Of a stretch of DNA of 32,284 nucleotides, positions 2,578-29,693 are shown one piece after another. This stretch comes from a virus: positions 1 through 32,284 of the IMG/VR virus record IMGVR_UViG_3300044639_000321; one strand, 5' to 3'. A model generated the notes under the pieces. The model was given only the letters and a program-made list of their open reading frames with translations. It was not told the DNA's origin and did no database searches. Both the position numbers and the translations under genes were made by a program. The stretch's first letter is position 1; each line of letters opens with the position of its first letter.

Positions 2578-3456
2578 TTAGAAGTTGACTTCTAGGCCAG
2601 CACCAATTTTTTGTACATTGGTTGCAGAGTCTTCTTTGACATAACGTGCGTGAACCAGAGTGTTCTTGCTCAGTGCATAAGATGCGCCAACATTGTAGGC
2701 CTTGACAGTGTCATTCTCACCGTAGCCAGCCAACAAAGTCACTGCACCCAGGGCCTGGTTAACACCAACTGATTTACCAGTGGTTGATGCACTAGATACT
2801 TTGTCTTCAGAATACATACCAAACACAGTTGTGTTTGCAATCTTGTACTTGGCACCGACCACACCCGAGTAGCTGTTGGTACCAGTGGTATAGCGAGCAG
2901 CGGTTGCGCTCACAGCACCCAGGGTGTACTCAACACTGCTGGCTTGTGATTCTGTAGTGCCACCAGCAACTTCGCCATTGGCGATTGCATACGTGGCAGA
3001 GAGTCCAGCCACAGGCTTTGCAGTCAAGAACACTGCATTTTGCAAACGTGAACCTTGTGCAGCATGAATAACTGCGGTGCTGGAACCAAAAGCATTGCCC
3101 ATGGCGTCATAGTTGTCAAGTGTGCGAGCAATGGTGTGTTTGTCACGACCCATGGCCACGGAACCCAACTTGTGAGACAAGCCAACAACAGCAGTGCGGT
3201 CACCCAGTGTGGTTGCTGCAGGAGCGTCGCCACCGTAGCCAGTTTCAAGCACAACGCCAGCAGTGATGCCGCCAGCAAGTGCTTCTGTGGCCTTGATACC
3301 GAATCGGCTGGAATCGTTTGTCAACGCGGTTACACCTTCGGCAGTGCCGGTCTTGGTGTTTTCTTGATACAAGCGAGCTTTACCGTAAACGGTAGCGTCA
3401 GCTTGTGCTAGGGAGGCGGCCAATGCTAGGGCCATTACTAAAGCATATTTCTTCAT
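2578..3456 (-). CDS. Phage-encoded Gram-negative outer-membrane porin
   Basis: A 292-residue trimeric-porin family protein. Residues 1-19 form a signal peptide (MKKYALVMALALAASLAQA, cleavage before D20). The mature part opens with TVYGKARLY, has the porin hallmark SRFGIKATEALAGGITAG near residues 50-67, alternating amphipathic strands throughout, and ends with Phe (GLEVNF), the BAM-recognition terminus. Betaproteobacterial porins are usually about 330-390 residues, so this one is short, probably with trimmed loops. It has an AAGGA ribosome binding site and its own terminator. Phage porins are rare; possible roles are altered nutrient uptake, receptor replacement or superinfection exclusion (inference). 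The gene looks intact, not a decaying relic. Confidence 0.93.
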   Translation of the reverse strand: MKKYALVMALALAASLAQADATVYGKARLYQENTKTGTAEGVTALTNDSSRFGIKATEALAGGITAGVVLETGYGGDAPAATTLGDRTAVVGLSHKLGSVAMGRDKHTIARTLDNYDAMGNAFGSSTAVIHAAQGSRLQNAVFLTAKPVAGLSATYAIANGEVAGGTTESQASSVEYTLGAVSATAARYTTGTNSYSGVVGAKYKIANTTVFGMYSEDKVSSASTTGKSVGVNQALGAVTLLAGYGENDTVKAYNVGASYALSKNTLVHARYVKEDSATNVQKIGAGLEVNF

Positions 3457-3527: not shown

Positions 3528-5453
3528 CTATTTTACCACTAAATTGGATGCTTCTGCATCAGAATAGGTGGATGGTATGAGATTTGCCTGCGGAATCACG
3601 CCCGCATACTCGCTGGGTATAGCAGTATCTTGTCCAATTCCCACACCGTTTAGCACCAAGAGATTGCGGCCTTCTCTTAGGCAGGCCACCATGGCTTGTC
3701 CACCCTGTGTAGAAAGATCAGCAACAGTTTCAATAAACTGTGCTGGGCCATTGGCTTCTGTGTTTGTTCCATATCCTGGAAGACTTTGTACAAAACTCAT
3801 GACTGGGCCGCGACCTGATGCACCAAGATTGGGAATGTCTATGCTGGCCAGAGCAAGATTGGTATTTTCGGAAACCAATTTTGCTGCCATTGAATTAAAA
3901 TCAGAATTCAAAATACCTGATTGCGTGGGATACGATACAGATATTGTAGACACCTGCACAGCAGCATTGGATATTAGTGTCTGCAATGCTGTGTCAGCAT
4001 TGGCATAAACTCCGGCACCTGTGCCTGCAGGAATAGTAACAGGTCCGGTGACAGCATCGCCGTAGACTCCGTCAACTGTGTTTTGCATTCTGGTATAGGT
4101 ATCGGTTAACCCTCCGAGAATACCTGTACCGGTCATGCTGTTGATTGTGACAGTGGCGTTGCTCAGTACGCTGGTGTAGTCGACTCCGACTGCGGCACCA
4201 AGTAGGTCAGTAATTACCAGAGTCCCATTAGGTCCGGTTCCAGTTGCATATGAACTGGAATAGTATGCGGCCACGCTAGCAGGTACAGCCTGTTCTAGTG
4301 CAGATATAGATGGTAGGTCCCTAGTGGTCTGCATGTCAACGAATGCTGCTGACAATTGAGGCAACCCAAGATTGTTTATATTTTTTATCTGCTGTAGACT
4401 AACTTGCATGGCCTTGCAAGCCAGAGCCTGGTCTGCTGGGATGATTCTGGCAAGTCTTTCATAGCTGATTGTATTTAGAGTGCCCAAGGTCATCACATAT
4501 CTTGGCAAGTAAATCAACAATTTTGAATTCACTGTGCCTTGTGTGTTATCGTAGATGGCTCGTAACACTGACGTGGTATCTTGATTGTAGGTTCGAACTG
4601 TGAGACTGGTAATACTGTTGGGGAATATTTTTGCAGGATTCAACAGGTCTGCCATGGTGTTTATGTTCTTGGTAGTCACACCAAAAATAGCCAACACTTG
4701 TTCTAGGTCAGTGCCTGTGACATTTAGCATGCCCAGGTATGCTAGATGTTGTACACTATCACTCACATTGTCATTGGGATTGGTGAGATTACCGATACTG
4801 GCTTCGTCAAGTCCTGCTTGAATCAAGATAGATTGAATGTTTGCTGTGAGGTTGGTCAGTGTAACCAATTGTCGTAGCAATGCTGCTGGAGAACCAAAAT
4901 TGCCAAGATTGTCAAGATCAATCAATTGTCCCAGTGCCGCTAGATCTAGTCCAAATGTTCTCATGGCCAAGGTGGTGTCGCTGAGATTGCCAGTGATAAG
5001 ACTGTTCATTGTGGTAAACGTTGAACCAAGATAGGTCTGACTGTTTACACTGGTGTTGATAAATTGATTGGTTGAAGTTACATAACCTTGTGCTGCACTA
5101 AACACCTGTGCAAAAACAGCAGTATTACCATTGCCAAGATAACTGGTGCCTTGAGCAGTAATTATACCAGTAAATCCTGATGTGGTGTTTGTGCCCAGAG
5201 AAGCATACGCAGCAGGTGTGTTGTCAGCCAGTGCAGGTACAGTGTTTGCACAAAATGTAAACATGCTGGTCAGTGTGTTTCCACTGATGTTGGCTGCGGC
5301 ACTGTTGCCCACAGTATTAAAAAATGGCGTCAATAGTGATGTGCTGGTATAAGCTGCGTCGGCAGCAGTCCAGGTATTGGCAATGGCCACGCCGCTGTTG
5401 TTGCTCAACGTGGCTCCAGCAATCATCTGTAATGGTGTTAATATACTAGCCAT
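3528..5453 (-). CDS. Large putative virion structural protein
   Basis: A 641-residue protein rich in Ala, Ser, Thr, Asn and Gly, with no signal peptide, few Cys and long beta/alpha-mixed stretches, starting MASILTPLQMIAGATLSNNS. Its ATG overlaps the PAAR gene stop as TAATG, so it is translated with a spike-tip protein. This context suggests a baseplate, hub or tail-associated role. In marine T4-like phages I recall large structural proteins of this composition, but I cannot assign a T4 counterpart. It ends 71 bases before the porin gene. Confidence 0.75.
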   Translation of the reverse strand: MASILTPLQMIAGATLSNNSGVAIANTWTAADAAYTSTSLLTPFFNTVGNSAAANISGNTLTSMFTFCANTVPALADNTPAAYASLGTNTTSGFTGIITAQGTSYLGNGNTAVFAQVFSAAQGYVTSTNQFINTSVNSQTYLGSTFTTMNSLITGNLSDTTLAMRTFGLDLAALGQLIDLDNLGNFGSPAALLRQLVTLTNLTANIQSILIQAGLDEASIGNLTNPNDNVSDSVQHLAYLGMLNVTGTDLEQVLAIFGVTTKNINTMADLLNPAKIFPNSITSLTVRTYNQDTTSVLRAIYDNTQGTVNSKLLIYLPRYVMTLGTLNTISYERLARIIPADQALACKAMQVSLQQIKNINNLGLPQLSAAFVDMQTTRDLPSISALEQAVPASVAAYYSSSYATGTGPNGTLVITDLLGAAVGVDYTSVLSNATVTINSMTGTGILGGLTDTYTRMQNTVDGVYGDAVTGPVTIPAGTGAGVYANADTALQTLISNAAVQVSTISVSYPTQSGILNSDFNSMAAKLVSENTNLALASIDIPNLGASGRGPVMSFVQSLPGYGTNTEANGPAQFIETVADLSTQGGQAMVACLREGRNLLVLNGVGIGQDTAIPSEYAGVIPQANLIPSTYSDAEASNLVVK

Positions 5454-5740
5454 TATGCTGCAAACACATCACCACTGCCTTGGCCAACTGATGTACAGCC
5501 TGCTAATGCATCGCCTACTCTGGCCAGAGGTTTACCATTTACAAAAACTGTGCTACTGCCCTGAGAGATTGAAGCCACATGCCCTTTGCATGGATTGCCG
5601 GGTCGTAAATGCCCTGTGCTACTGTCTCCCACTCTGGCTGCTGGTCGGTTGTTGATGAACACATCACCACTGCCGTTGGCAATGGTGTATCCACTGCAAT
5701 GTGGAACTCCTTGGTCACCTTTTCTCGCCGCTGCGGGCAT
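5453..5740 (-). CDS. PAAR-domain spike tip protein
   Basis: A 95-residue PAAR protein. It shows the family opening MPAAARKGD, the motif NRPAARVGD (about residues 31-39), a repeat of the same unit as GKPLARVGD (69-77), and His/Cys residues (H14, C15, H44, C51, C82) suited to a metal site at the tip. PAAR proteins cap the central spike (gp5.4 position in T4) and sharpen it for membrane penetration. I chose the ATG at 5740 because GGAG lies seven bases upstream; a TTG two codons earlier is less likely. Its start lies inside the upstream gene, and its stop overlaps the next start. Confidence 0.93.
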   Translation of the reverse strand: MPAAARKGDQGVPHCSGYTIANGSGDVFINNRPAARVGDSSTGHLRPGNPCKGHVASISQGSSTVFVNGKPLARVGDALAGCTSVGQGSGDVFAA

Positions 5741-5930
5741 GTTCAATCTCCATAAGTTTTAAAAACTGATTGTGCCATTGTTCAATTTCATCGTGTTCCT
5801 CACTGGTGTGTGGGCCTGGTGGGATTTCTGGTAGAAATTCTATCACATGGTCTAAGTCGTCAGGGATATCTTTGTATTGGTCATACACAAAAAGCTCAGT
5901 GCCTTTCATGATTACAAATCTATGCCCCAT
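5715..5930 (-). CDS. Hypothetical phage protein (71 aa)
   Basis: A 71-residue acidic protein beginning MGHRFVIMKGTELFVYDQYK, with a C-terminal helix (HDEIEQWHNQFLKLMEIEHA). Its 3' end overlaps the PAAR gene by 26 bases. The ATG follows a late-promoter-like CATAAATA by only four bases and has no Shine-Dalgarno sequence, so it may be leaderless. Linkage to the PAAR gene suggests a virion or assembly role, but no family is recognised. Confidence 0.65.
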   Translation of the reverse strand: MGHRFVIMKGTELFVYDQYKDIPDDLDHVIEFLPEIPPGPHTSEEHDEIEQWHNQFLKLMEIEHARSGEKR

Positions 5931-14686: not shown

Positions 14687-15007
14687 TTAAACTCTAAAAC
14701 TTTCTCCGCAACCACAGCGGTCGCGTTCGTTGGGATTTGAAAATTGAAATCCTTCATTGAGTCCTTGTCTTGTGTAGTCTACTTCAAGTCCTTTAAGATA
14801 GGCACAACTTTTGGGATCAACAAACAATTTGCAGTTGGCACAGTCAATGCAGATATCGTCAGGCTGTGCTGTATCTACATATTCTAGCACATAAGCAAGT
14901 CCAGAGCAACCTGTGGTTCTTACACCAACACGAATACCAATACCATGGCCGCGACGTTGAATGGTTTGAGTTATTTTTCTAGCAGCATCATCAGTTAAGG
15001 AGATCAT
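14687..15007 (-). CDS. iscA: A-type Fe-S carrier (IscA/HesB family)
   Basis: A 106-residue protein with the three invariant ligands C34 (TTGCSGLAY), C98 and C100 (CGCGESF), and the family core LEYVD. A-type carriers accept and transfer Fe-S clusters to apoproteins. Four extra Cys (53, 56, 59, 68) are present, more than usual. Its start overlaps the iscU 3' end by 17 bases, so the pair is an operon. It may be specialised for a phage or host cluster enzyme; the client is unknown. Confidence 0.93.
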   Translation of the reverse strand: MISLTDDAARKITQTIQRRGHGIGIRVGVRTTGCSGLAYVLEYVDTAQPDDICIDCANCKLFVDPKSCAYLKGLEVDYTRQGLNEGFQFSNPNERDRCGCGESFRV

Positions 15008-15383
15008 GCTTGCTCTTGTAATCTTCTACAGCAGCCTTGATGGCATCTTCGGCCAGGATGCTGCAATGGATCTTGACAGGGGGTAATGCTAGTTCTTCGG
15101 CAATGTCGGAGTTTTTGATTGTTCCTGCTTTGTCGATGTGCATTCCTTTGACCCATTCGGTAATGAGGCTCGAACTCGCAATAGCCGATCCGCAGCCATA
15201 CGTTTTAAATTTTGCATCTGTAATAATACCTGTATCATTGTCGACCTTTATCTGTAGTTTCATTACGTCACCGCAGGCAGGAGCGCCAACCATGCCTGTG
15301 CCAACGTCCGCATCGTCCTTGGCAAAGCTGCCCACATTGCGTGGATTTTCATAGTGATCGATTACTTGATTTGAATAAGCCAT
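14991..15383 (-). CDS. iscU: Fe-S cluster scaffold IscU
   Basis: A 130-residue IscU with all functional residues: C37, D39, C64, H106 and C107, plus the HscA-recognition LPPVK (100-104). The start MAYSNQVIDHYENPRNVGSF is typical and picks ATG 15383, which has an AAGGAA ribosome binding site; an upstream in-frame start is less likely. It would receive sulfur from the host IscS, since no desulfurase is encoded here. A TTGACT-17-TATACT promoter stands just upstream, so iscU-iscA-exonuclease may be expressed early. Confidence 0.96.
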   Translation of the reverse strand: MAYSNQVIDHYENPRNVGSFAKDDADVGTGMVGAPACGDVMKLQIKVDNDTGIITDAKFKTYGCGSAIASSSLITEWVKGMHIDKAGTIKNSDIAEELALPPVKIHCSILAEDAIKAAVEDYKSKHDLLN

Positions 15384-15400
15384 ACCAGTTCCTTTTGTTG

Positions 15401-15429
15401 AGTATACTACCAACAGGCTGACTAGTCAA
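15401..15429 (-). promoter_or_regulatory. Sigma70-type promoter of iscU
   Basis: On the minus strand TTGACT (15429-15424), a 17-nt spacer, TATACT (15406-15401). The iscU ATG is 18 bases downstream with a ribosome binding site. Its spacer differs from the repeated early promoters, so it may be acquired with iscU or tuned separately. Confidence 0.8.
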
Positions 15430-18354: not shown

Positions 18355-20304
18355 TTAAGGGCTTGGTGGGTTGTTTCGAGCTTTGTTTCTGGCTGTGAAA
18401 TCAAAGCGATTTACTGCTTTACCATAACCTGCAGGGGTTGCAAACACCCATCCTTCATTGCCGGGCACTTGTGCATCCAGCTTGGTCAACAGGTCCAGTT
18501 TTAGATCATGCAGCAATTCAAACAACACAAAGGCAGCGGCCAAGGCTTGTTCATTGCTGGTGGGGCTGCGCAGATATTGCAGAATGTTGTTGTATTTTTG
18601 CGGTGTCTGAGTCTGTTGCAGCCAGGCTAGAAATCCTGGAACAAGGTCACTGAAATTGCCGGTGTAGGCTGCGTGATTTGGATCCACACGTTTGTTGATG
18701 TAGTCTATTGCCAACTTGGCCAAGTCAGTTATTTTCATGGCCCGTAATTCAGCAGGATTAAACAAGGTGTTCATAACTGCTCGGTTTTGACGCAACAGTG
18801 TTTTGATTTGTTTAACAATGGGATCTGCTGTTTCCACAGGTTTGGCATAGATGGGTTCAATCAACAACAGGCCGGGCACAGGGTTGAACTTGACTCTGCT
18901 GAGTGGTTGCTTGGCTGCTCCTGCCTCTTCGTACATGGTATGCACAGCAACGCCAACTTGGGATCCTGCAATGTCCTTGCCCAGTTTGCTAGCAACTGGA
19001 ATTCTGTATTCCACTGTATTTGGTTTGAATTCCACAAGGCCTGCATTTATTTCCCAGGGCTTTTCGGGACTATACAACAGGTCGCCCTTGACATAGCCAC
19101 GAAAGTTTTCTGGGGTAGCAGCTTCCAAATATGGCCAGATGCTTTGATACACTGGCAACAGTGTTTGCACTCGGGTGGCCTGGTTGCCTTTGGCAGCAGC
19201 ATTGGCATCACGCTGTGCCATGTGATCGGCCACAGCATCGGTACTGGTAAACAGGCCATCATATCCAACTGCACCGAATCCTGCATCATCTGTGAGCACA
19301 AATTCTCCGGTATCGGGCTTGCGACCAAATACCACAGCAGGCTTTCCGTCCCATTTTACGGACCCTTGTTTGGGCTGTTTGTAAAAAGAATCAGCAATGG
19401 CCAGCGCACGGTCAACACCCGCGGTTCCTTGACGGAACACATAGTCTTCCAGATGCTCAATGCCCTTGGCTTGGCCGCCCACCGAGGTGGGCTCTTGTTC
19501 GTATATCTGATACAGGGGCTTGGCTTCAATCAATTGCTGCATGCCTTGGTTTACTATTCTGTCTCGTAGTCTGGCCAAGAAGTTCACATCATTTTCTTTT
19601 ACAGGCATTTCAGGTTCTTTAAGGCCTTCGCGGGAGAGATATTCACGAAAGTCTTTGATCTTGGCATCACGTTCGGGATCTGTTGCCAAAGCAGCATAAA
19701 TGGATTCTACGTTCTTTAACGCAGCTCGATCCTGAGTTCCGCCCAGCAATACCGCAGACACATAGTCCGGATCCTGGCCACCTCGGACTAGTTCATTTGT
19801 GGTGCGACTGATCATGCCATTTGCACCCACCTTGAGCCCGGCCTGTTTGGCCAAGCTGCTCAGCAGCACATTACGATTCATGCCCTTGTAGGCCGATCCT
19901 TCAGATCCACCATAATAGAATGTGCCCCAGTCCAGATTGGGAAAAAACATGAAGTCAGTTTGCACAAATCCTTTGTTGGGATCACCGCCAATAGGTGTTC
20001 TAAGATGCACTTCGCCTAATTTACGAACCCATTCACGTGGGTCAAGCCCCTGACTGGTGGCCCATTGTGTCAGTCCTGCTGCCACTTGTTCTTTGGTTGT
20101 TTCTCCAAGATCCACAGCCAGATCCAGATCGCCGGATGTGGGCTTGCGACCAGTGCTGCCTAGCCAACGATCTTGAGGGAATTTGATACCTGTAACTTGT
20201 TCCACCCAGGCAATGGTGGCTGCAACGTCAGCTTGATTGATGCGTTGTGTCAGTGGTTGGCCTTGAGGGTCTTTGAATACATTGCCGCCTTCGAAAATTT
20301 TCAT
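18355..20304 (-). CDS. Two-domain nucleotidyltransferase and ligase-like protein
   Basis: A 649-residue protein. Residues 1-165 hold a Pol-beta-type nucleotidyltransferase core: G49-S50, D59-L-D61-L in GDLDLAVDL, and D117 in VQTDFMF. Residues 265-460 plus the C-terminus look like a covalent nucleotidyltransferase (DNA/RNA ligase type): K317-W-D-G (motif I, VKWDGKPAV), FRGYVKGDLLY (401-411, motif III region), then E617-G-W-V (motif IV) and K629 (motif V). A helical insert of about 140 residues (490-610) separates motifs III and IV. It could seal or tail nucleic acid. It follows a small conserved gene with an AGGATCAGGATC ribosome site. The domains are read by motif; the combined activity is unproven. 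Confidence 0.75.
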   Translation of the reverse strand: MKIFEGGNVFKDPQGQPLTQRINQADVAATIAWVEQVTGIKFPQDRWLGSTGRKPTSGDLDLAVDLGETTKEQVAAGLTQWATSQGLDPREWVRKLGEVHLRTPIGGDPNKGFVQTDFMFFPNLDWGTFYYGGSEGSAYKGMNRNVLLSSLAKQAGLKVGANGMISRTTNELVRGGQDPDYVSAVLLGGTQDRAALKNVESIYAALATDPERDAKIKDFREYLSREGLKEPEMPVKENDVNFLARLRDRIVNQGMQQLIEAKPLYQIYEQEPTSVGGQAKGIEHLEDYVFRQGTAGVDRALAIADSFYKQPKQGSVKWDGKPAVVFGRKPDTGEFVLTDDAGFGAVGYDGLFTSTDAVADHMAQRDANAAAKGNQATRVQTLLPVYQSIWPYLEAATPENFRGYVKGDLLYSPEKPWEINAGLVEFKPNTVEYRIPVASKLGKDIAGSQVGVAVHTMYEEAGAAKQPLSRVKFNPVPGLLLIEPIYAKPVETADPIVKQIKTLLRQNRAVMNTLFNPAELRAMKITDLAKLAIDYINKRVDPNHAAYTGNFSDLVPGFLAWLQQTQTPQKYNNILQYLRSPTSNEQALAAAFVLFELLHDLKLDLLTKLDAQVPGNEGWVFATPAGYGKAVNRFDFTARNKARNNPPSP

Positions 20305-20630: not shown

Positions 20631-22118
20631 TTAGCTAGCTTTGATCTGCCCCAGCAACTGCTTGAGTTTGTTGCTTTGTACATCTGCTGTGACTCGACCA
20701 CTTAAGGGATCATGACCATCTCGTGGTCTGGGCTTTTCCCAGGGCTGCGAACTACCACCGCTGTCAGCAGGCGCGACTTGACTGCGGGCCTTGATTGAAT
20801 CCATGATTGAACTTTGTGGTTTGTTGTGGCCGTTTTCGTCCCCACCTTCATCAGTAATGCGCATGGTTTCAATGTTGTACTCCAGATCAATTTTTTGACC
20901 AACGCCGGTCGAGCTTCGAGATTTCATACATTGTATCTGATACTTGCCGCGCTCTTTCATGGAGCGACTGGTAAAGATACCAAACACATTGTCTGCTGTG
21001 TTGATTTTGCTGATACCACCTGAAATGTGGCTGTGATCAAATTCCATTTCTTCCACTGCTGATCTGTTCAACTGACTTGCTGTTACCAACAACACGCCCA
21101 GTTCCTTGGCCAAGTTGCGCAGTTCTTCCGACACATACTTGTCTTTCACAAACAAGTCGTTGGGGCTGACCTTGGCACTCACAGGCATGACCAAGTCAAG
21201 ATAATCCACCATCACAAAGTCCACTTTAATACCTGTTTGAATTTGCACTTCTTTCAGGTATGCACGAATGTCGTTCACATTGCTTTGTGCTGGCAAGCCT
21301 TTCACACGATACTGTCCGGATTTCTTGGCCACCATCTTGACCTTGAGTTCTGTTGAATCAATATCACGGCGTATGTCCTTGGTGCTCATGTTTGTGAGCA
21401 TGGCGTCTGTTCTCAAACTTGTGAGTTCTTCTGATAGTTCCAGTGTGATGTACACGCCACTCATGCCCTGCTGCAACCAGTTTAGTGCAATGTTCATCAT
21501 CACAAGACTCTTGCCCGAGCCCGAACCACCTGCAAAGATGTTGAGTTCTCCACGACTGAATCCACCATACAGTAGCCGATCCATCTGTGGCCAGCCTGTT
21601 GATACTTGTCCACCCGAGTTGAAATACTTGTTGATACGTGCTGCTGGATCTGCAAAGTAGTCTGTGCCCATGTCCTTGGTCAGACTGATCTGTACAGCAT
21701 CCTTGATCAGTTTTTCCACAGGATCATAGTCGCCCTTTTCCAACAAGTCTGCTGCTTTTAGAATAGCACGTTCCAGTTCTTGACGCCGTGTAAATGCTTC
21801 AAACTCAGTCATGAACCAGTCATAGTGACCTTCGTTGAGATCTGGCACTGCATTCAACTTGATGCCTGTGGCCGCAGCAATCTGTGCTCGGTCTGGCAGA
21901 GTCTTGAACTGTTCCGAATGCTCCTTGATAAACGCCGCAGCGGTTCTTAGATTGCGATCAAAATTTTCTGGATTGTAGATGTTCTGCACCCGAACGTAGC
22001 TGGCAGCATCCTCCAGCATCATTTCTAGGAATAGTTTTTGAACATCAGTGCTGTAGTCTTTTAACAAGTTGTTTCTTTCGTAATTCAATTTTGATTCGGC
22101 TAGTTTCTCTAGCGTCAA
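20631..22118 (-). CDS. 41: Replicative DNA helicase (gp41-like, DnaB family)
   Basis: A RecA-fold helicase of up to 495 residues. The Walker A is A-G-G-S-G-S-G-K203-S, the Walker B region reads FVMVDYLDLV near residue 295, and ASQLNRSAV with GGISKINTADNVFGIF follows as in DnaB/gp41. The N-terminal 150 residues are the helical dimer domain, and the C-terminal 80 are Pro/Gly-rich, as in gp41 tails. No ATG exists in the first 32 codons; the start is probably a TTG (22118, or 22088 or 22064), all overlapping the primase gene end. It unwinds DNA and works with the primase encoded upstream. Confidence 0.93.
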   Translation of the reverse strand: MTLEKLAESKLNYERNNLLKDYSTDVQKLFLEMMLEDAASYVRVQNIYNPENFDRNLRTAAAFIKEHSEQFKTLPDRAQIAAATGIKLNAVPDLNEGHYDWFMTEFEAFTRRQELERAILKAADLLEKGDYDPVEKLIKDAVQISLTKDMGTDYFADPAARINKYFNSGGQVSTGWPQMDRLLYGGFSRGELNIFAGGSGSGKSLVMMNIALNWLQQGMSGVYITLELSEELTSLRTDAMLTNMSTKDIRRDIDSTELKVKMVAKKSGQYRVKGLPAQSNVNDIRAYLKEVQIQTGIKVDFVMVDYLDLVMPVSAKVSPNDLFVKDKYVSEELRNLAKELGVLLVTASQLNRSAVEEMEFDHSHISGGISKINTADNVFGIFTSRSMKERGKYQIQCMKSRSSTGVGQKIDLEYNIETMRITDEGGDENGHNKPQSSIMDSIKARSQVAPADSGGSSQPWEKPRPRDGHDPLSGRVTADVQSNKLKQLLGQIKAS

Positions 22119-23028
22119 TTATAGTTAGCAATGTGCCCAGGCGCCCATATAGTTTGACAGCATCATTCACATCCTTGACTTCCCGGGGCCATGCGGGCAT
22201 GCTCACAGCCCAACCCAGTTCCAGCGCACGATCCACTAGTTCCATACCTGCTAGATCCTGGTCAGGCACCACTGTGATTTCTCGACCAAGGTTGCGAATC
22301 AGTCTAGCTTGAGCATCACTTATAGTATTGTGCATCAAGGCAACACCGCCAATGCTGAGTGCATCAAAAATGCCTTCTGTCACAATCACCTGAGTCCAGT
22401 CTGATCGCTGTAGGTCTGTGCCAAACACATAGCCCGGCTGCATGTCATTTATGTAACGCGGATTCCGATCATCCAGAAATCTAACAGTGTGTCCCACAAT
22501 GCTGTTGTGATGTGTGAATGGTATGATCACTTGTTCACGACTGGGCCAGGCACGTTCGGGACTTGTTTGTGTCATCACAGGATAATCATCCGGCACACAT
22601 CTTGCTCGCACATAGTCGCGGTGTGGTCCTGTGTTACCAACTAGTTCAGCAAATGGCGGCAGGTCGCGTTCTTCAAACTTGGTATCTGCTAGAATATCCA
22701 CGGTGCGTTGTCTATCATCTAGTATGCCGTGTATGCTTTTATGGCGCAGGCTTTCAAGGTTGGCCAATTCTATTTCACGATCGGGCACACCCAGCCAGCC
22801 CAAGAGCCTGCGGGCCTTGAAACTCAATGAGCGGCCAAGGATAAAGCTAGCGGTGTAGTTGCAGTTGAAGCAGTGATAACTCCAACCTTGTTCAGATGCT
22901 TTAAGACCGCCACGACTTCTACGATCTGGTGTGTCGCCGTTGTGTTCACAACACACAGCATTAAAACTGATCCAACCCGATGCACTAGATTTTCGTTTGG
23001 TAGGTAAGTATCCAAGAATGTCGAGCAT
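22045..23028 (-). CDS. 61: DNA primase (gp61-like)
   Basis: A 327-residue primase. The N-terminal zinc site is C26-C-E-H29 and C53-F-N-C56. A helical linker follows, then a Toprim domain with VIVTEGIFDAL (E218) and VVPDQD (D256, D258). It makes RNA primers for the lagging strand together with the helicase whose gene overlaps its last 74 bases, the 61-41 order known from T4-like phages. The ATG follows the SGNH gene stop by two bases without a clear ribosome binding site. Confidence 0.93.
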   Translation of the reverse strand: MLDILGYLPTKRKSSASGWISFNAVCCEHNGDTPDRRSRGGLKASEQGWSYHCFNCNYTASFILGRSLSFKARRLLGWLGVPDREIELANLESLRHKSIHGILDDRQRTVDILADTKFEERDLPPFAELVGNTGPHRDYVRARCVPDDYPVMTQTSPERAWPSREQVIIPFTHHNSIVGHTVRFLDDRNPRYINDMQPGYVFGTDLQRSDWTQVIVTEGIFDALSIGGVALMHNTISDAQARLIRNLGREITVVPDQDLAGMELVDRALELGWAVSMPAWPREVKDVNDAVKLYGRLGTLLTIIDARETSRIKIELRKKQLVKRLQH

Positions 23029-24899: not shown

Positions 24900-25277
24900 A
24901 TGGGCAAAGACTTATTTCAAAAACTAGCTGACAAATATCCGTTTATTACCTTGTGCGTTTACGCCAGCAATGAATATGTGGGGATTGTGCAAAACAGAGA
25001 TGATGTTATCACAACCATCTATGACTTTGGAACTGTCAAAGATTCAGAACAAAAACGACGTTATCTTGACCTGGCCAACACTTGGTGGTGGGAAAGCAAC
25101 AGAAGCATCCCTATCAACATATTCCTGCGTGGAGAATGGGATGAATTTCGTCTGTGCCTTCGAACATTTGTCAACAAAGATCTGGAAATCTTGCACGGTC
25201 CTGTGTGCAGCCTAAATGACATTGCCCGTAGAAAAGGCAAGAGAAAATCAATTACTCTTGTGAGACGTCTAGACTAA
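24900..25277 (+). CDS. Conserved T4-like phage protein (125 aa), sole plus-strand gene
   Basis: A 125-residue protein starting MGKDLFQKLADKYPFITLCV, with YVGIVQNRDD, DLANTWWWESNRSIPINIFL and a basic tail RRKGKRKSITLVRR. I recall this WWWESNRxIPINIFL block as highly conserved in T4-like cyanophages, function unknown. It has its own exact late promoter but no obvious Shine-Dalgarno sequence. Its 3' end overlaps the convergent DnaE-like gene by nine bases. A virion or late assembly role is suggested by the promoter. Confidence 0.82.
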   Translation: MGKDLFQKLADKYPFITLCVYASNEYVGIVQNRDDVITTIYDFGTVKDSEQKRRYLDLANTWWWESNRSIPINIFLRGEWDEFRLCLRTFVNKDLEILHGPVCSLNDIARRKGKRKSITLVRRLD

Positions 25278-25829
25278 CAGATTCATATGCAGTGCCACTA
25301 GAGCCGCATATCCTAGAGCATGTGCCTTTTTAAATGTGTAGCCTCGACTGGTATCGCCGTCCCAGACTGAATCAAACACCGTGGGCCAGGCTTGATTCTG
25401 TAGGTGTGCCTTGCCCGGGCGTATGATTGATATAAATGCAGCCATTCTGGGTATGCTGTCAGGCTTCATGGTTTCAAGTAAATGTCCATAATTGCCCACA
25501 TGAACCAACTGTCTAGCCCATTCAGGATCTTGCCATAGTCTAGTCCATGGGGGCGTGGCTGCAAGCACAGCGTCATAGTGTTCAGGGCTCTGAATCAACT
25601 GATACACACTCATGTTCAAGAAGTCCAGTTTGAAGTAGCCTCGTGATTCTGCTGACTCGTAGTCTATGGCAGCACAGTGATTGATAGGATCTTGTGGAAT
25701 GTCTGTGACATACACTCCTGAATTGTGACGTCTAGGCCGCCCATCTGTGATCTGCCGTGCAGGTGTGTGCTGAATCAATTTCAGTATATCATCTCGATCA
25801 GCAAAGTCAATGTCGATATCTGCGCTCAT
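25269..25829 (-). CDS. Miniature DNA polymerase III alpha (DnaE) palm-like protein
   Basis: A 186-residue protein beginning MSADIDIDFADRDDILKLI. I chose ATG 25829 because it overlaps the upstream stop as ATGA. Four blocks follow bacterial DnaE order: ADIDIDF (DnaE PDFDxDF, first catalytic Asp pair), RHNSGVYVTDIP (DnaE KHAGGVVIAP), YFKLDFLNM (DnaE VKFDFLGL, third catalytic Asp, here D69), then LLETMKPDSIPRMAAFISII with RPG and GYTFKKAHALGYAALVALHM, matching DnaE blocks LQPD...ALFRPGPL and GYGFNKSHSAAYALVSYQ. PHP, fingers, beta-binding and OB parts are absent. It may be a catalytic or decoy palm. The reading comes from remembered DnaE sequence, not a search. Confidence 0.72.
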   Translation of the reverse strand: MSADIDIDFADRDDILKLIQHTPARQITDGRPRRHNSGVYVTDIPQDPINHCAAIDYESAESRGYFKLDFLNMSVYQLIQSPEHYDAVLAATPPWTRLWQDPEWARQLVHVGNYGHLLETMKPDSIPRMAAFISIIRPGKAHLQNQAWPTVFDSVWDGDTSRGYTFKKAHALGYAALVALHMNLLV

Positions 25830-26164
25830 ACTGTACACAACGCCACAACGGTTTGTAATTGCTGTTCGGCTAGACGCACAGCATCCAGTGCATCTGCCAC
25901 AGCAGGATGCTTTTGTGCTAGGCCCTGGGCTGCTTTCTCTTGTGTCATCTTTAGCCATGCCCAGGCCAGTGCTTCTTCAGCATTGGCTGTAAGACCCACA
26001 CTAGAGTCACCACCAATGGTAAGCCAGGTGTAGCCATCATACACCTGCATTTGACTGTTATGGTATCGTACCAAACCTGCACTAGGAGTATTGTTGTTGA
26101 TGGATGCTCCAATTGGGTTTGATACTGTGACCCATGTGCTTGCGCCATAAACGTTTGTGATCAT
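25826..26164 (-). CDS. Conserved phage virion-like protein (112 aa)
   Basis: A 112-residue protein starting MITNVYGASTWVTVSNPIGA. The N-terminal half is beta-rich with VRYHNSQMQVYDGYTWLTIG, a fibre-like unit. The C-terminal half is a long helix, EEALAWAWLKMTQEKAAQGL and DAVRLAEQQLQTVVAL. I recall the VYDGxxWxxI plus helix arrangement in T4-like cyanophages, role unknown. It lies between a zinc-finger gene and the DnaE-like gene with overlapping ends. Confidence 0.72.
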   Translation of the reverse strand: MITNVYGASTWVTVSNPIGASINNNTPSAGLVRYHNSQMQVYDGYTWLTIGGDSSVGLTANAEEALAWAWLKMTQEKAAQGLAQKHPAVADALDAVRLAEQQLQTVVALCTV

Positions 26165-26165
26165 G

Positions 26166-26840
26166 TTACCATCCTGCTTGTTTCAAAATGTTCTTGGCAT
26201 AGGCCTGATCCTGGGGTCTATCCTGAAATCGCCTTTGCCATGCATCGCTGTCAATATAAGGCCATATCATACTAACCTGTGTGGCATCTAGTTCGCTTAG
26301 AAACTTCTGCCCCGATTCTGAATTGTAAATTACCCAAGGACTTATTCTACCTGCAGTCACAGCATAGCACAGGACATTGGCATTGCCATATCGCATGCAA
26401 TCATGTGCCGGGCTGGCATTTTTTTCTGACCAGTCTATGCCAAACTCAATGGCTCGTGCAAGTGCATCATCCACTGCTTCTACTTTTAGATGATCCACTA
26501 GATATTCTGTGTACACCTTGTCGCTGCACCAGTGATCAATCTTGCGATTGTGTTTCAACAGCCAGGCCATGAATCTTTCCGGATTGATCACTCGAGTGTT
26601 CACACAGTAGTGTCCAAACTTTACAAACGCACGATAGTAACTGCTTTCACAAAAGGTATCGTGTGACTTGTTTCTGGCTGATCCTGCCATGCTTTCGTAA
26701 AAGCGGATGTAGGCTTGAAATCCCAGTCTTGGGCCCGGTTCGTCACGCTCGCGACGACGACGTTTGGGTTCGCACATGTGCGCTTGTATAGATGTTTCTC
26801 TCACAAACTCTTTTTTGCAATATTCGCACACATGGGTCAT
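26166..26840 (-). CDS. Conserved T4-like protein with C2H2-like zinc finger
   Basis: A 224-residue protein. The N-terminus CEYCKKEFVRETSIQAHMC has C5, C8, H21 and C23, a C2HC-type finger, followed by a very basic stretch KRRRRER. The remainder is helical with RFYESMAGSARNKSHDTFCE, FVKFGHYC, and GRISPWVIYNSESGQKFLSE. I recall the GRISPWVLY block from T4-like cyanophages. Nucleic-acid binding is likely for the finger; the overall role is unknown. It is cotranscribed with the possible clamp-loader gene upstream. Confidence 0.78.
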   Translation of the reverse strand: MTHVCEYCKKEFVRETSIQAHMCEPKRRRRERDEPGPRLGFQAYIRFYESMAGSARNKSHDTFCESSYYRAFVKFGHYCVNTRVINPERFMAWLLKHNRKIDHWCSDKVYTEYLVDHLKVEAVDDALARAIEFGIDWSEKNASPAHDCMRYGNANVLCYAVTAGRISPWVIYNSESGQKFLSELDATQVSMIWPYIDSDAWQRRFQDRPQDQAYAKNILKQAGW

Positions 26841-26845
26841 GCTGA

Positions 26846-27292
26846 TTACTTTTTGGTGTTACCCGAGTCTCGATTGTATGCGTCTAGTTCTTTTTGTGTG
26901 ATCAGTTCTGCCATTACGTCAATTTCGTCGTCTTTGTAGGTGGGATATATTTCCATCAAGGCTTTACGTTTGGCACTGAGTCCTGCTTGTTTTTTCTTGA
27001 GAGCGATCCAAGGATGTCGCATTGTGCCCATGCCCGGACTCATTGCAGTAGCACACAGCCATTGCAGTTTGGGATGACGGCCTATGTCAAAAAAGTGCTT
27101 GTTGAGATAGTGGTTGCAGCTCTGCACATAGTATTCTTGTAGTTCCTGGGCTCCTTCCACTGCTGAACCCCAGCGCAACATCAGGAACGTGGAGAATTTC
27201 TTGCGCTCATCTGAGTCAAGTTCATCATAGAAGTTTCTGTTCTTGACGTCCAGTTGGCGCATCTCGTTTGAAATGTGTAGTTTATCACTCAT
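26846..27292 (-). CDS. Possible phage clamp-loader small subunit (gp62-like)
   Basis: A 148-residue protein starting MSDKLHISNEMRQLDVKNRN; the ATG at 27292 overlaps the upstream TGA (ATGA). Residues 22-100 read DERKKFSTFLMLRWGSAVEG ... NKHFFDIGRHPKLQWLCATA, a helical pattern similar to what I recall for phage clamp-loader A subunits (gp62 family). It sits close to UvsW and other replication genes. Similarity to T4 gp62 itself is weak, so the call is tentative; an alternative is an unrelated conserved phage protein. Confidence 0.5.
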   Translation of the reverse strand: MSDKLHISNEMRQLDVKNRNFYDELDSDERKKFSTFLMLRWGSAVEGAQELQEYYVQSCNHYLNKHFFDIGRHPKLQWLCATAMSPGMGTMRHPWIALKKKQAGLSAKRKALMEIYPTYKDDEIDVMAELITQKELDAYNRDSGNTKK

Positions 27293-27684: not shown

Positions 27685-28185
27685 CTACCAGGCCTTGTTG
27701 TAGTCAACTATTTCGCAGTTGCGGCTGACGTCTTTGACAAAGTACACACAGTCAGGTTGTTCAGCATCGTTGATGGGCACACACAGCATCTGCCCATTCT
27801 TGAGTTTGGGTGCATACCAAGACACTTCTTGATAAACGTCGATAATCTCAATGGGTGGAAAACTGGGTCTAAAACTGCTGAGAGGATTGAACTGGAACAC
27901 ATTGAAACCACGATCATTGATACTGGTCAAGGGCAGCATTTCGAGATCGCCTAGGTCCGGCTCGCCAATTAGAATTTGCCAGTCCACGGGCATTTTAATT
28001 CTGGCATCACCTATTTGCAACACCAGAGCAGGTGCGCTGAAGCTTTCTAAAAATATCAAAGGTATGTAATGATAATCTGGATCTTGTGGGTTGCTGTTGT
28101 CTAGGATGGCAAAACGCATGTCATCTACTTCGTCGGGCAAATGATCTAGATCATAGGGTTTGTTGTCAAGTGTTAAAATTCTCAT
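27685..28185 (-). CDS. Conserved T4-like phage protein downstream of uvsW (166 aa)
   Basis: A 166-residue acidic protein beginning MRILTLDNKPYDLDHLPDEV and ending VYFVKDVSRNCEIVDYNKAW. The middle has a beta-rich core (ARIKMPVDWQILIGEPDLGD) and the block EVSWYAPKLKNGQMLCVPIN, which I associate with marine T4-like phages. A TTGACT-17-TATTAT promoter lies directly before it, and the ATG begins six bases after the -10, without a ribosome binding site: a leaderless candidate. Function unknown. Confidence 0.75.
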   Translation of the reverse strand: MRILTLDNKPYDLDHLPDEVDDMRFAILDNSNPQDPDYHYIPLIFLESFSAPALVLQIGDARIKMPVDWQILIGEPDLGDLEMLPLTSINDRGFNVFQFNPLSSFRPSFPPIEIIDVYQEVSWYAPKLKNGQMLCVPINDAEQPDCVYFVKDVSRNCEIVDYNKAW

Positions 28186-28223: not shown

Positions 28224-29693
28224 TTATTTGATCTTCATCCACTCTAGTTTCTCTGCAGAGAATGGGTATGAGGCTTCTTTGTAAAACTGTTTGCGCTTGG
28301 TCAAGTGACGTTTGGCAAACTTGCAGGTGCTGGTGATATCCCAGATTTCCACGTGGTCTTTGTCTTCGGCTTTTCTAATGCCGCGCCCAATACTCTGTAT
28401 CACACGCACAAAGCTCTTGCCTGGCTCTACCAGCACAAGATTAAAGATACGTGGTATGTTGATGCCCACAGCAGCCACGCCATACGTGGCCACAATGATC
28501 TTGTCCGTGGCATCAGCTACCTGGTTGTATTCGTCCTGGCGAGTTTTTGACTTGGTAGCACCAGACACAAATACTGCTTTGTCACCCAGGCGTTCTACCA
28601 GTTGTCGTCCACATTCGGTCCTGTCTACCAGCACCAGAGTGTTGCCTGTTTCGTTTACCTTGCGTATCAGTTCAGCCATGGTGTCCAAGCGTCCAGACTC
28701 TTCCAGCAGGTATTTGAGCTCGCTTTGATAGTCAGCATATTCCACATGGTCCACCAGTTGCACGATGTTCACATGGCACTGTGCCAGAACACCTGCGTCT
28801 TGTAGTGTGCTGGCACTGAGTTGACTGACCACAGGACCTAGACTAACCAACAGGGCCTGGCTTTCAAACAGTTCTTTTGGCACTGTCCCGGTTAGTCCCC
28901 ATCTTAAGGGAATCTGACTCATGGCTCCGGTCAGCAGAGTCTTGAGTGCATCAGCCTTGGCCATGTGAACCTCGTCCACAATCACACACACCACATCTTG
29001 TATAAACTCATGAATGGTTATTTCTGCTTCGCCAGTCTTGGTCAGCTTCATCATGTTGTTGAGACTCTGCCAAGTGCATATAGTATGCTGACGGTTGTAT
29101 TCTTTACGATCGCCAAAATACACGCCCACATCCAGATTCATGTTGACGTAGTCTTGTTCAGTCTGCGTTACCAGACTCTTGTTGGGCACAATCACAATGC
29201 TACGACCATAGGCACTGACTGCATCGCTTAGTGCTGCTGTGATGATGGTCTTGCCTGCACCTGTGGCCACTTCTTGTATGCACTGCGGATTGGTCAGGAA
29301 CTTGTTGATGATTTCCACTTGGTAATCACGCAGCATCATGGGCTGGCCGGCTGCTGGATGAGTCCGCGGCCACAGCACATGACTGTAGTGATTCTCAGAC
29401 ACTGCTGCAAAGTCAAAAGAAGTGGTGTACTCACGTTGATCATCCAGCACAGGGCTGTAGTCAAACTTGTCAAGTATGGGCATGATCTCCGGCAAGAGAT
29501 TCACATAGGTGCTGCCACCCAACTGGAAGTAGGCAATCTTGCCATCCCATCGGCCCAGACGTACTGCGGGTAGGTAACGTGCTGCCGGATTCTCATACTT
29601 AAAAGCATTAACCAGAGCCTTGCGGCAATCCAGATCAAGTCCTTCTATCTTGATGTTGACTTCATCTCGAATTACTATGGTGCATTGTTTCAT
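28224..29693 (-). CDS. uvsW: Recombination DNA helicase UvsW
   Basis: A 489-residue SF2 helicase. Residues 1-100 form the UvsW N-terminal DNA-binding module (RLGRWDGKIAYFQLGG). Motif Q/I follow: LRDYQVEII, ATGAGKT (143-149), motif II DEVH (240-243), motif III GLTGT, and C-terminal motifs VFVSGATKSKT and QSIGRGIRK (motif VI). UvsW resolves stalled forks and R-loops and switches T4 from origin to recombination-dependent replication. The length is close to T4 UvsW. Its first 32 bases overlap the upstream gene. Confidence 0.95.
   Translation of the reverse strand: MKQCTIVIRDEVNIKIEGLDLDCRKALVNAFKYENPAARYLPAVRLGRWDGKIAYFQLGGSTYVNLLPEIMPILDKFDYSPVLDDQREYTTSFDFAAVSENHYSHVLWPRTHPAAGQPMMLRDYQVEIINKFLTNPQCIQEVATGAGKTIITAALSDAVSAYGRSIVIVPNKSLVTQTEQDYVNMNLDVGVYFGDRKEYNRQHTICTWQSLNNMMKLTKTGEAEITIHEFIQDVVCVIVDEVHMAKADALKTLLTGAMSQIPLRWGLTGTVPKELFESQALLVSLGPVVSQLSASTLQDAGVLAQCHVNIVQLVDHVEYADYQSELKYLLEESGRLDTMAELIRKVNETGNTLVLVDRTECGRQLVERLGDKAVFVSGATKSKTRQDEYNQVADATDKIIVATYGVAAVGINIPRIFNLVLVEPGKSFVRVIQSIGRGIRKAEDKDHVEIWDITSTCKFAKRHLTKRKQFYKEASYPFSAEKLEWMKIK

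What the first reader, a model, noticed from the sequence alone, without database searches (positions are those of the whole stretch)
25269..25829. 186-residue stand-alone miniature of the DnaE (family C polymerase) palm
The protein keeps, in the correct order, the blocks around all three DnaE catalytic aspartates (DIDIDF; KLDFL), the basic GVYV block, the MKPDSIPRMA...IIRPG block and the GYTFKKAHALGYAAL block, yet lacks PHP, fingers, thumb and beta-binding parts. T4-like phages replicate with a family B polymerase, so a family C palm remnant beside primase, helicase and UvsW genes is unexpected. It could be a minimal nucleotidyltransferase, an inhibitor that mimics host Pol III, or a repurposed structural part.
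Basis: partly seen in the sequence, partly recalled or inferred. Interest (0 to 1): 0.86.

Follow-up and report, generated by a model that had tools for sequence, protein, structure and literature searches.

The report
Half of a split mini polymerase
The gene encodes one half of a stripped-down copy of the bacterial chromosome-copying enzyme, which these large viruses keep as two separate genes beside their own unrelated DNA polymerase; the arrangement is already described in print, but no laboratory test of it turned up.

Summary
The finding is real. On the minus strand, 25829-25269 encodes a 186-aa protein ("B") homologous to the DnaE (Pol III alpha) catalytic core; its model is confident (pLDDT 94), and the 13 best fold matches are family C polymerases (Z 6.3-9.8; next row 3.1).

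It is not a stand-alone palm remnant but the C-terminal half of a minimal DnaE cut into two genes. The other half ("A", ~175 aa, with GxGRGS) lies elsewhere in the genome. A aligns with E. coli alpha residues 278-393, B with 398-776. Of 60 phage records matching A at 1e-10, 60 have B. Equivalents of D401, D403, D555 and the steric-gate H760 are invariant in 214 of 214 distinct B, GxGRGS in 91 of 91 distinct A. Twelve of 12 named phages examined also have a family B polymerase. A is absent from this 32-kb fragment; in three near relatives it lies 95-108 kb from B.

Iyer et al. 2021 (PMC7824862, passages) already described this split minimal Pol III: a new member of a known kind. Added here: exact cut, both half-sites, A's clamp-loader neighbourhood, a convergent companion gene, an unsplit compact DnaE in near relatives.

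The parts
25269..25829 (-). Protein B: C-terminal half of the split minimal DnaE (D4, D6, D69 = E. coli D401, D403, D555; D8 = D405; H35-G38 = HAGG; K67 = K553; R137-P138 = RPG; H170 = steric-gate H760)
24900..25277 (+). Gene C (phrog_11637, unknown function), convergent with B and overlapping its 3' end; found in 58 phage records, all of which carry B
25826..26164 (-). Small ORF (112 aa) just upstream of B, ATGA overlap with the B start; no Pfam match
26166..26840 (-). Upstream neighbour, phrog_11058, unknown function
26846..27286 (-). Upstream neighbour, phrog_11758, unknown function
27685..28185 (-). Upstream neighbour, phrog_11279, unknown function
28224..29693 (-). UvsW-like DNA helicase upstream of B
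   Evidence: a helicase annotated at the same place
22045..23028 (-). DNA primase (phrog_47), downstream part of the cluster
20631..22118 (-). DnaB-type replicative helicase (DnaB_C), downstream part of the cluster

Best explanation
Protein B is the magnesium-binding and template-side half of a minimal DnaE-type polymerase made of two separately encoded chains. Protein A (not in this fragment) supplies the first part of the palm, with the GxGRGS motif that in this fold contacts the nucleotide triphosphate (recalled; Iyer et al. call this half NTP-binding). B supplies the three metal-binding aspartates, the basic K67, and a stub of the fingers with the steric-gate histidine. The two chains are inferred to assemble non-covalently at the junction where DnaE runs from residue 393 to 398 and so rebuild one active site. 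With no room for PHP, clamp-binding or OB parts and little thumb, the enzyme is inferred to be distributive and tied to the phage replisome, where it would fill gaps, extend primers or do repair beside the family B replicase. Shown here: homology, the complementary cut, co-occurrence, invariance of the catalytic positions, purifying selection on B, coexistence with a family B polymerase in named relatives. Inferred: binding of A to B, catalysis, the job in the cell.
For: Fold comparison: B 1-186 on E. coli alpha 398-776 (Z 8.2, 182 aligned, rmsd 3.9), Taq 460-833 (Z 9.8), PolC 970-1291 (Z 9.7); the best row outside the DNA polymerases has Z 3.1. A 79-178 on E. coli 278-393 (Z 9.4), A 75-178 on M. 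tuberculosis 304-413 (Z 11.8), A 82-178 on PolC 824-965 (Z 7.7); all 15 rows are DNA polymerases. Profile search of the PDB: 9 of 9 hits for B and 9 of 9 for A are Pol III alpha. Invariance: D4, D6, D8, K67, D69, H170 in 13 of 13 B found by tblastn and 214 of 214 distinct B; R, E and GxGRGS in 12 of 12 A found by Pfam profile and 91 of 91 distinct A. Co-occurrence: 60 of 60 records with A have B; on IMG/VR contigs of 176 kb or more, 10 of 12 picked by B have A and 7 of 9 picked by A have B. No fusion: the 259 open frames matching B, duplicates included, are all under 250 aa. Distances of A and B correlate, r = 0.90 over 22 records, 0 of 10,000 permutations as high. dN/dS of B has median 0.091 over 22 usable of 61 pairs with the window. 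A lies by an RFC-type clamp-loader gene in 49 of 51 loci.
Against: No complex was modelled (the tool takes one chain) and no coordinates were given, so clustering of D4, D6 and D69 was read from superposition only. About 80 residues of the thumb stretch and about 90 of the fingers stretch are gone relative to E. coli, so catalysis is not assured. Foldseek alone is weak (best E 4.8e-4 for B, 1.7e-3 for A). G009 and G010 (191 and 359 kb) have A but no B, and G022 and G026 (262 and 195 kb) have B but no A, although these contigs may be incomplete. Retrieval bias: the contig scans used patterns that contain K67-D69, H35-G38, R137 (B) or GRGSS (A), so invariance at those positions is partly built in; D4, D6, D8 and H170 are in no pattern, and searches are free of it. 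The A-B distance correlation also reflects shared phage ancestry. The window lacks A.
Confidence: 0.68

Rival explanations
1. The A-B pair is a nucleotidyltransferase but not a template-directed DNA polymerase, for example a terminal transferase or an enzyme that adds nucleotides to a protein or small molecule.
For: Most of the thumb and fingers stretches are missing; metal and GS-motif residues are kept.
Against: The steric-gate His, the RP of the RPG block and H35-G38 are invariant, and both genes sit among replication genes (for B; 95, 97, 99 for A).
Confidence: 0.15
2. B, or A plus B, is a decoy of host Pol III alpha that binds host epsilon, tau or clamp and blocks host replication.
For: Sequence and fold resemble host alpha.
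Against: The parts of alpha that bind epsilon (PHP), clamp and tau (C-terminal regions; recalled) are the parts missing; a decoy does not need every catalytic residue, yet these are invariant.
Confidence: 0.07
3. It is a catalytically dead scaffold or virion part that kept the fold.
For: Some neighbours are annotated as virion structural proteins.
Against: Invariance of D4, D6, D8 and H170 in 214 of 214 distinct B is not expected of a dead scaffold.
Confidence: 0.06
4. It is a decaying remnant of a once complete DnaE.
For: Large deletions relative to DnaE.
Against: dN/dS median 0.091 over 22 usable of 61 pairs; invariant residues across 214 distinct sequences.
Confidence: 0.02

Closest known systems
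Split minimal DNA polymerase III alpha of group 2.2 jumbo phages (Iyer et al. 2021, PMC7824862; passages read)
   Same: Two distantly located genes for an N-terminal NTP-binding and a C-terminal Mg2+/template-binding part; family B polymerase in the same phages. In PHROGs the halves are 11127 (A) and 11778 (B).
   Different: Nothing that defines the kind. The window protein is a divergent member (29-44% identity to the 12 named phage proteins) on a fragment that does not include A. In near relatives L110, L112 and L117 a separate unsplit PHP-less DnaE is also present, whereas that paper says phages with the split form hold no other Pol III domains.
Bacterial DnaE (Pol III alpha)
   Same: Palm and fingers core, D401/D403/D405/D555, GS motif (in A), HAGG, RPG, FNKSH with H760.
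   Different: Cut in two at E. coli 393/398; no room for PHP, beta-binding, OB or C-terminal domains; thumb and fingers stretches reduced.
PolC
   Same: Same core fold (PolC 970-1291).
   Different: B carries the DnaE-type Asp at the D405 position in 214 of 214 distinct sequences, which PolC replaces with Asn (PMC3919608, passages).
PHP-less compact phage DnaE (for example the 567-aa protein of L112)
   Same: Same catalytic blocks, no PHP.
   Different: Unsplit; matches most of PF07733 (19-260 of 260) and most of the fingers model PF17657 (22-154 of 166).

Membership tests
Split minimal Pol III alpha (Iyer et al. 2021) | Stand-alone C-terminal half with the Mg2+-binding aspartates | tested here: met
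Split minimal Pol III alpha (Iyer et al. 2021) | Stand-alone N-terminal half with the GS motif, at a distance in the same genome | tested here: inconclusive
   Absent from the 32-kb window; present in 3 of 3 contigs of 176 kb or more of close relatives, 95-108 kb from B, and in 0 of 3 shorter ones of 85-100 kb; present in 12 of 12 named phages
Split minimal Pol III alpha (Iyer et al. 2021) | Family B polymerase in the same phage | tested here: inconclusive
   12 of 12 named relatives; not searched for in the window or in the window-clade contigs
Split minimal Pol III alpha (Iyer et al. 2021) | Reconstitution of an active enzyme from the two halves | not testable with these tools
   No complex modelling and no bench work
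Family C polymerase, DnaE type | D401, D403, D555 equivalents | tested here: met
   D4, D6, D69 in 13 of 13 and 214 of 214 distinct sequences
Family C polymerase, DnaE type | DnaE-type Asp at D405 | tested here: met
   D8 in 214 of 214; PMC3919608 passages
Family C polymerase, DnaE type | GS motif in the same chain | tested here: not met
   B starts after it; it is on A
Family C polymerase, DnaE type | PHP domain and full thumb in the same chain | tested here: not met
   186 aa aligned to E. coli 398-776 only; D8-H35 is 27 residues against 106 in E. coli
Family C polymerase, DnaE type | Full fingers domain in the same chain | tested here: not met
   R137-H170 is 33 residues against 121 in E. 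coli; no PF17657 match for the two B proteins scanned
Family C polymerase, DnaE type | Polymerase activity | not testable with these tools
   Needs biochemistry

The most novel reading that the evidence does not exclude
A and B together are the smallest family C DNA polymerase, active only as a heterodimer with one active site shared between two chains, and the product of the convergent gene C is a dedicated third part or regulator, so that these phages run a three-part mini Pol III next to a T4-like family B replisome.
Probability: 0.25. Interest if true: 0.72.

Novelty: new member of a known kind. Interest (0 to 1): 0.45.

Why it matters
If the two halves rebuild an active enzyme, they show how little of a family C polymerase is needed for catalysis, with the core split at the catalytic loop and no clamp-binding part. 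It would also be a replisome that pairs a bacterial-type with an archaeo-eukaryotic-type polymerase. The question is directly testable with two small proteins, for example those of Pseudomonas phage Paride or Escherichia phage PBECO4.

Tried and rejected
Pfam, NCBIfam and PDB searches with the single sequence gave no DnaE match; PHROGs, profiles and folds did. A stand-alone enzyme was rejected because the GS-motif half is absent from B and present as a separate gene. Trans-splicing or split inteins: not supported; in the 12 phages read, the half-proteins end and start near the DnaE junction with no intein-sized extra sequence, and no fused A-B frame occurs among 259 B and 110 A open frames, duplicates included. 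Rejoining by frameshift: not possible in the 12 named phages, where the genes lie about 11 kb or more apart. Bacterial origin of B: the scan of 84,980 species genomes gave 13 loci, all in metagenome-assembled genomes; I take these to be phage contigs, which was not tested. A DnaQ-type exonuclease as partner: PF00929 is in 9 of 15 records (9 of 12 named phages, 0 of 3 window-clade contigs), so it is not an obligate partner. The first ~75 residues of A are not covered by the rows and were not tested alone. The weaker A matches (146 records at E up to 0.01, 60 shown) include phages without B, such as Tenacibaculum phage Larrie; I take them to be ordinary DnaE but did not check them one by one. 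A tree to decide between a primitive and a reduced form was not made: too few aligned residues and too few outgroups in hand.

Full report
What was checked. The ORF at 25269-25829 is on the minus strand and encodes 186 aa. It hits PHROG 11778 at E = 4.7e-50, and tblastn finds 63 phage records, most of them of 284 kb or more, such as RaK2, 121Q, GAP32, PA5oct, Atu_ph07, SCTP-2 and Phosso, plus the 141-kb Slicko01 (RAS14). The single sequence does not hit DnaE in Pfam, NCBIfam or PDB sequences. A 53-row profile does: 9 PDB hits at E up to 10, all Pol III alpha, best E = 4.8e-4, with the pieces PDIDIDF, KMDFL...RPG and FNKSH in order.

The missing half. A PF07733 search over 12 named phages that hold B gave, in 12 of 12, a second small ORF matching only profile positions of about 16-98 of 260. 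Reading both shows that protein A ends at the DnaE 'ERFLN' stretch and B begins just before 'DIDIDF'. Fold comparison puts the cut between E. coli residues 393 and 398: A aligns with 2hnh 278-393 and B with 2hnh 398-776; the same complementarity holds for M. tuberculosis DnaE 5lew (304-413, then 418-803) and PolC 3f2b (824-965, then 970-1291). The aligned part of A begins at residue 75-82.

Active site. With E. coli numbering, D4/D6/D69 are D401/D403/D555 and H170 is H760. PMC3919608 (passages) states that the three aspartates are absolutely conserved in family C and that D405 is DnaE-type, Asn in PolC; B has Asp there (D8). PMC8485763 (abstract and passages) identifies H760 as the steric gate. 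In 214 distinct B sequences D4, D6, D8, H35, G38, K67, D69, R137, P138, K140 and H170 are invariant; in 91 distinct A sequences R109, E113 and GxGRGS are invariant. Caveat: the contig scans that supplied most of these rows searched for patterns containing K67-D69, H35-G38 or R137 in B and GRGSS in A, so those positions are partly selected for; D4, D6, D8 and H170 are in no pattern, and the rows found by tblastn or by Pfam profile show the same residues in 13 of 13 B and 12 of 12 A. The spans D8-H35 (27 residues, 106 in E. coli) and R137-H170 (33 residues, 121 in E. coli) show where thumb and fingers were lost or never present.

Pairing. In the phage collection 60 records match A at E of 1e-10 or less. 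All 60 have B: 58 are in the listing, and RAS14 and CM1 have it (comparison). Of 62 B records that I saw (one of the 63 was never listed), 61 have A; Slicko01 has it by PF07733, and the exception, PP728206, is a 109.5-kb record. On IMG/VR contigs of 176 kb or more, 10 of 12 picked by B have A (3 of 3, 7 of 9; G022 and G026 lack it) and 7 of 9 picked by A have B (G009 and G010 lack it, also with the deeper profile). Three B contigs of 85-100 kb have no A. In the window's own clade (G001-G003) A lies 95-108 kb from B, which would explain its absence here. Sequence distances of A and B correlate with r = 0.90 over 22 records (0 of 10,000 permutations), in part because both follow the phage tree.

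Setting. In the window B lies between a UvsW-like helicase with several small genes upstream and a convergent gene, primase and replicative helicase downstream. Annotated helicase or UvsW upstream and primase or helicase downstream are seen at the same places in Phosso, Paride, RaK2, SCTP-2, PBECO4, GAP32, Hallingskeid and XbC2; in Vibrio phage 2.275.O the upstream gene is annotated only as a P-loop NTPase, in Atu_ph07 only the downstream primase/helicase is labelled, in Slicko01 the downstream part is kept but no UvsW is labelled upstream, and XacN1 and RAS14 differ. Around A, 51 of 51 loci with room have a GroES-like gene and 49 of 51 an RFC-type clamp-loader gene downstream (the names are my reading, in line with the annotations). 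The 12 named phages have PF00136 family B polymerase matches, 12 of 12; a simple pattern search found the DTDS motif in 11 of 12 and the SLYP-type motif A in 9 of 12. B is under purifying selection: dN/dS median 0.091 over the 22 of 61 pairs with the window where synonymous changes were not saturated; the three closest pairs give 0.07-0.09.

Gene C. The convergent gene (24900-25277 plus) overlaps the 3' end of B. Homologues occur in the same 58 phage records with either of two queries, all of them B records; of the 60 listed B records only XacN1 and Slicko01 have no match. In the fetched loci, 212 of 249 B loci with room have a convergent ORF of at least 90 aa there, and 195 of those 212 resemble the window's C. 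Its function is unknown (phrog_11637). C is not discussed in the passages of PMC7824862 that I read; I did not read the whole paper or its supplements.

Prior art. PMC7824862 (passages read) reports the phage-specific minimal Pol III alpha, split into two distantly encoded proteins, next to a family B polymerase, and suggests cooperation in strand synthesis or repair and an ancestral origin. PMC5259590 (passages) had noted a truncated 172-aa alpha in phage CBB; PMC6102473 (passages) noted an alpha and an epsilon subunit in Atu_ph07. The listings of searches showed no experimental study of the pair. The terms looked for were not found in that sense in the 2026 survey of bacterial DNA polymerases PMC12926913 (passages), and the 2026 jumbo-phage review PMC13282480 has no occurrence of 'DNA polymerase' in its main text. 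The library holds open-licence papers only, so absence is not proved; the 2016 survey of viral replication proteins that I looked for is not held.

Reading. The best-supported account is a two-chain minimal DnaE with a shared active site that works beside the family B replicase. Homology, cut, pairing and invariance are shown; binding, catalysis and role are inferred. The Asp at D405 in every B is DnaE-like rather than PolC-like; this fits descent from the DnaE branch, but it would also fit an ancestral state with the PolC Asn derived, so the ancestral view of Iyer et al. is not settled here.

Noticed in passing
L112:14863-16563 (-), L117:14809-16518 (-), L110:14141-15862 (-); fragments in L113, L252 and L272: Contigs that carry B, three of them close to the window, also carry an unsplit, PHP-less DnaE of about 567 aa (PF07733 and PF17657) about 4 kb from B; 2 of 18 window-clade loci with 7 kb or more downstream, plus L110. 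The closest phage match is an unannotated 484-kb uncultured phage (37% identity)..
   Followed up: partly
window 24900-25277 (+): Gene C, convergent with B and overlapping its 3' end, has nearly the same phage distribution as B (58 of 58 C records have B). Function unknown.
   Followed up: partly
A loci, for example L392 and L394: A is followed by a conserved ~131-aa family (49 of 51), a GroES-like gene (51 of 51) and the clamp loader (49 of 51) in the loci with room.
   Followed up: partly
window 18355-20304 (-): DUF6267 protein whose N-terminus reads GSTGRKPTSGDLDLAVD, which looks like a Pol-beta-type nucleotidyltransferase signature (my reading); no PDB sequence match.
   Followed up: partly
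window 2578-3456 (-): Gram-negative porin gene (Porin_4, E = 2.6e-25) in a phage fragment; I would not expect one there.
   Followed up: no
window 14687-15413 (-): IscU-like (NifU_N) and IscA-like (Fe-S_biosyn) genes side by side in the phage.
   Followed up: no
window 5453-5746 (-): PAAR-motif protein, plausibly a tail-spike tip.
   Followed up: no
G010 (359 kb) and G009 (191 kb): Contigs with A but no detectable B even with the deep profile; either incomplete or true A-only phages.
   Followed up: partly
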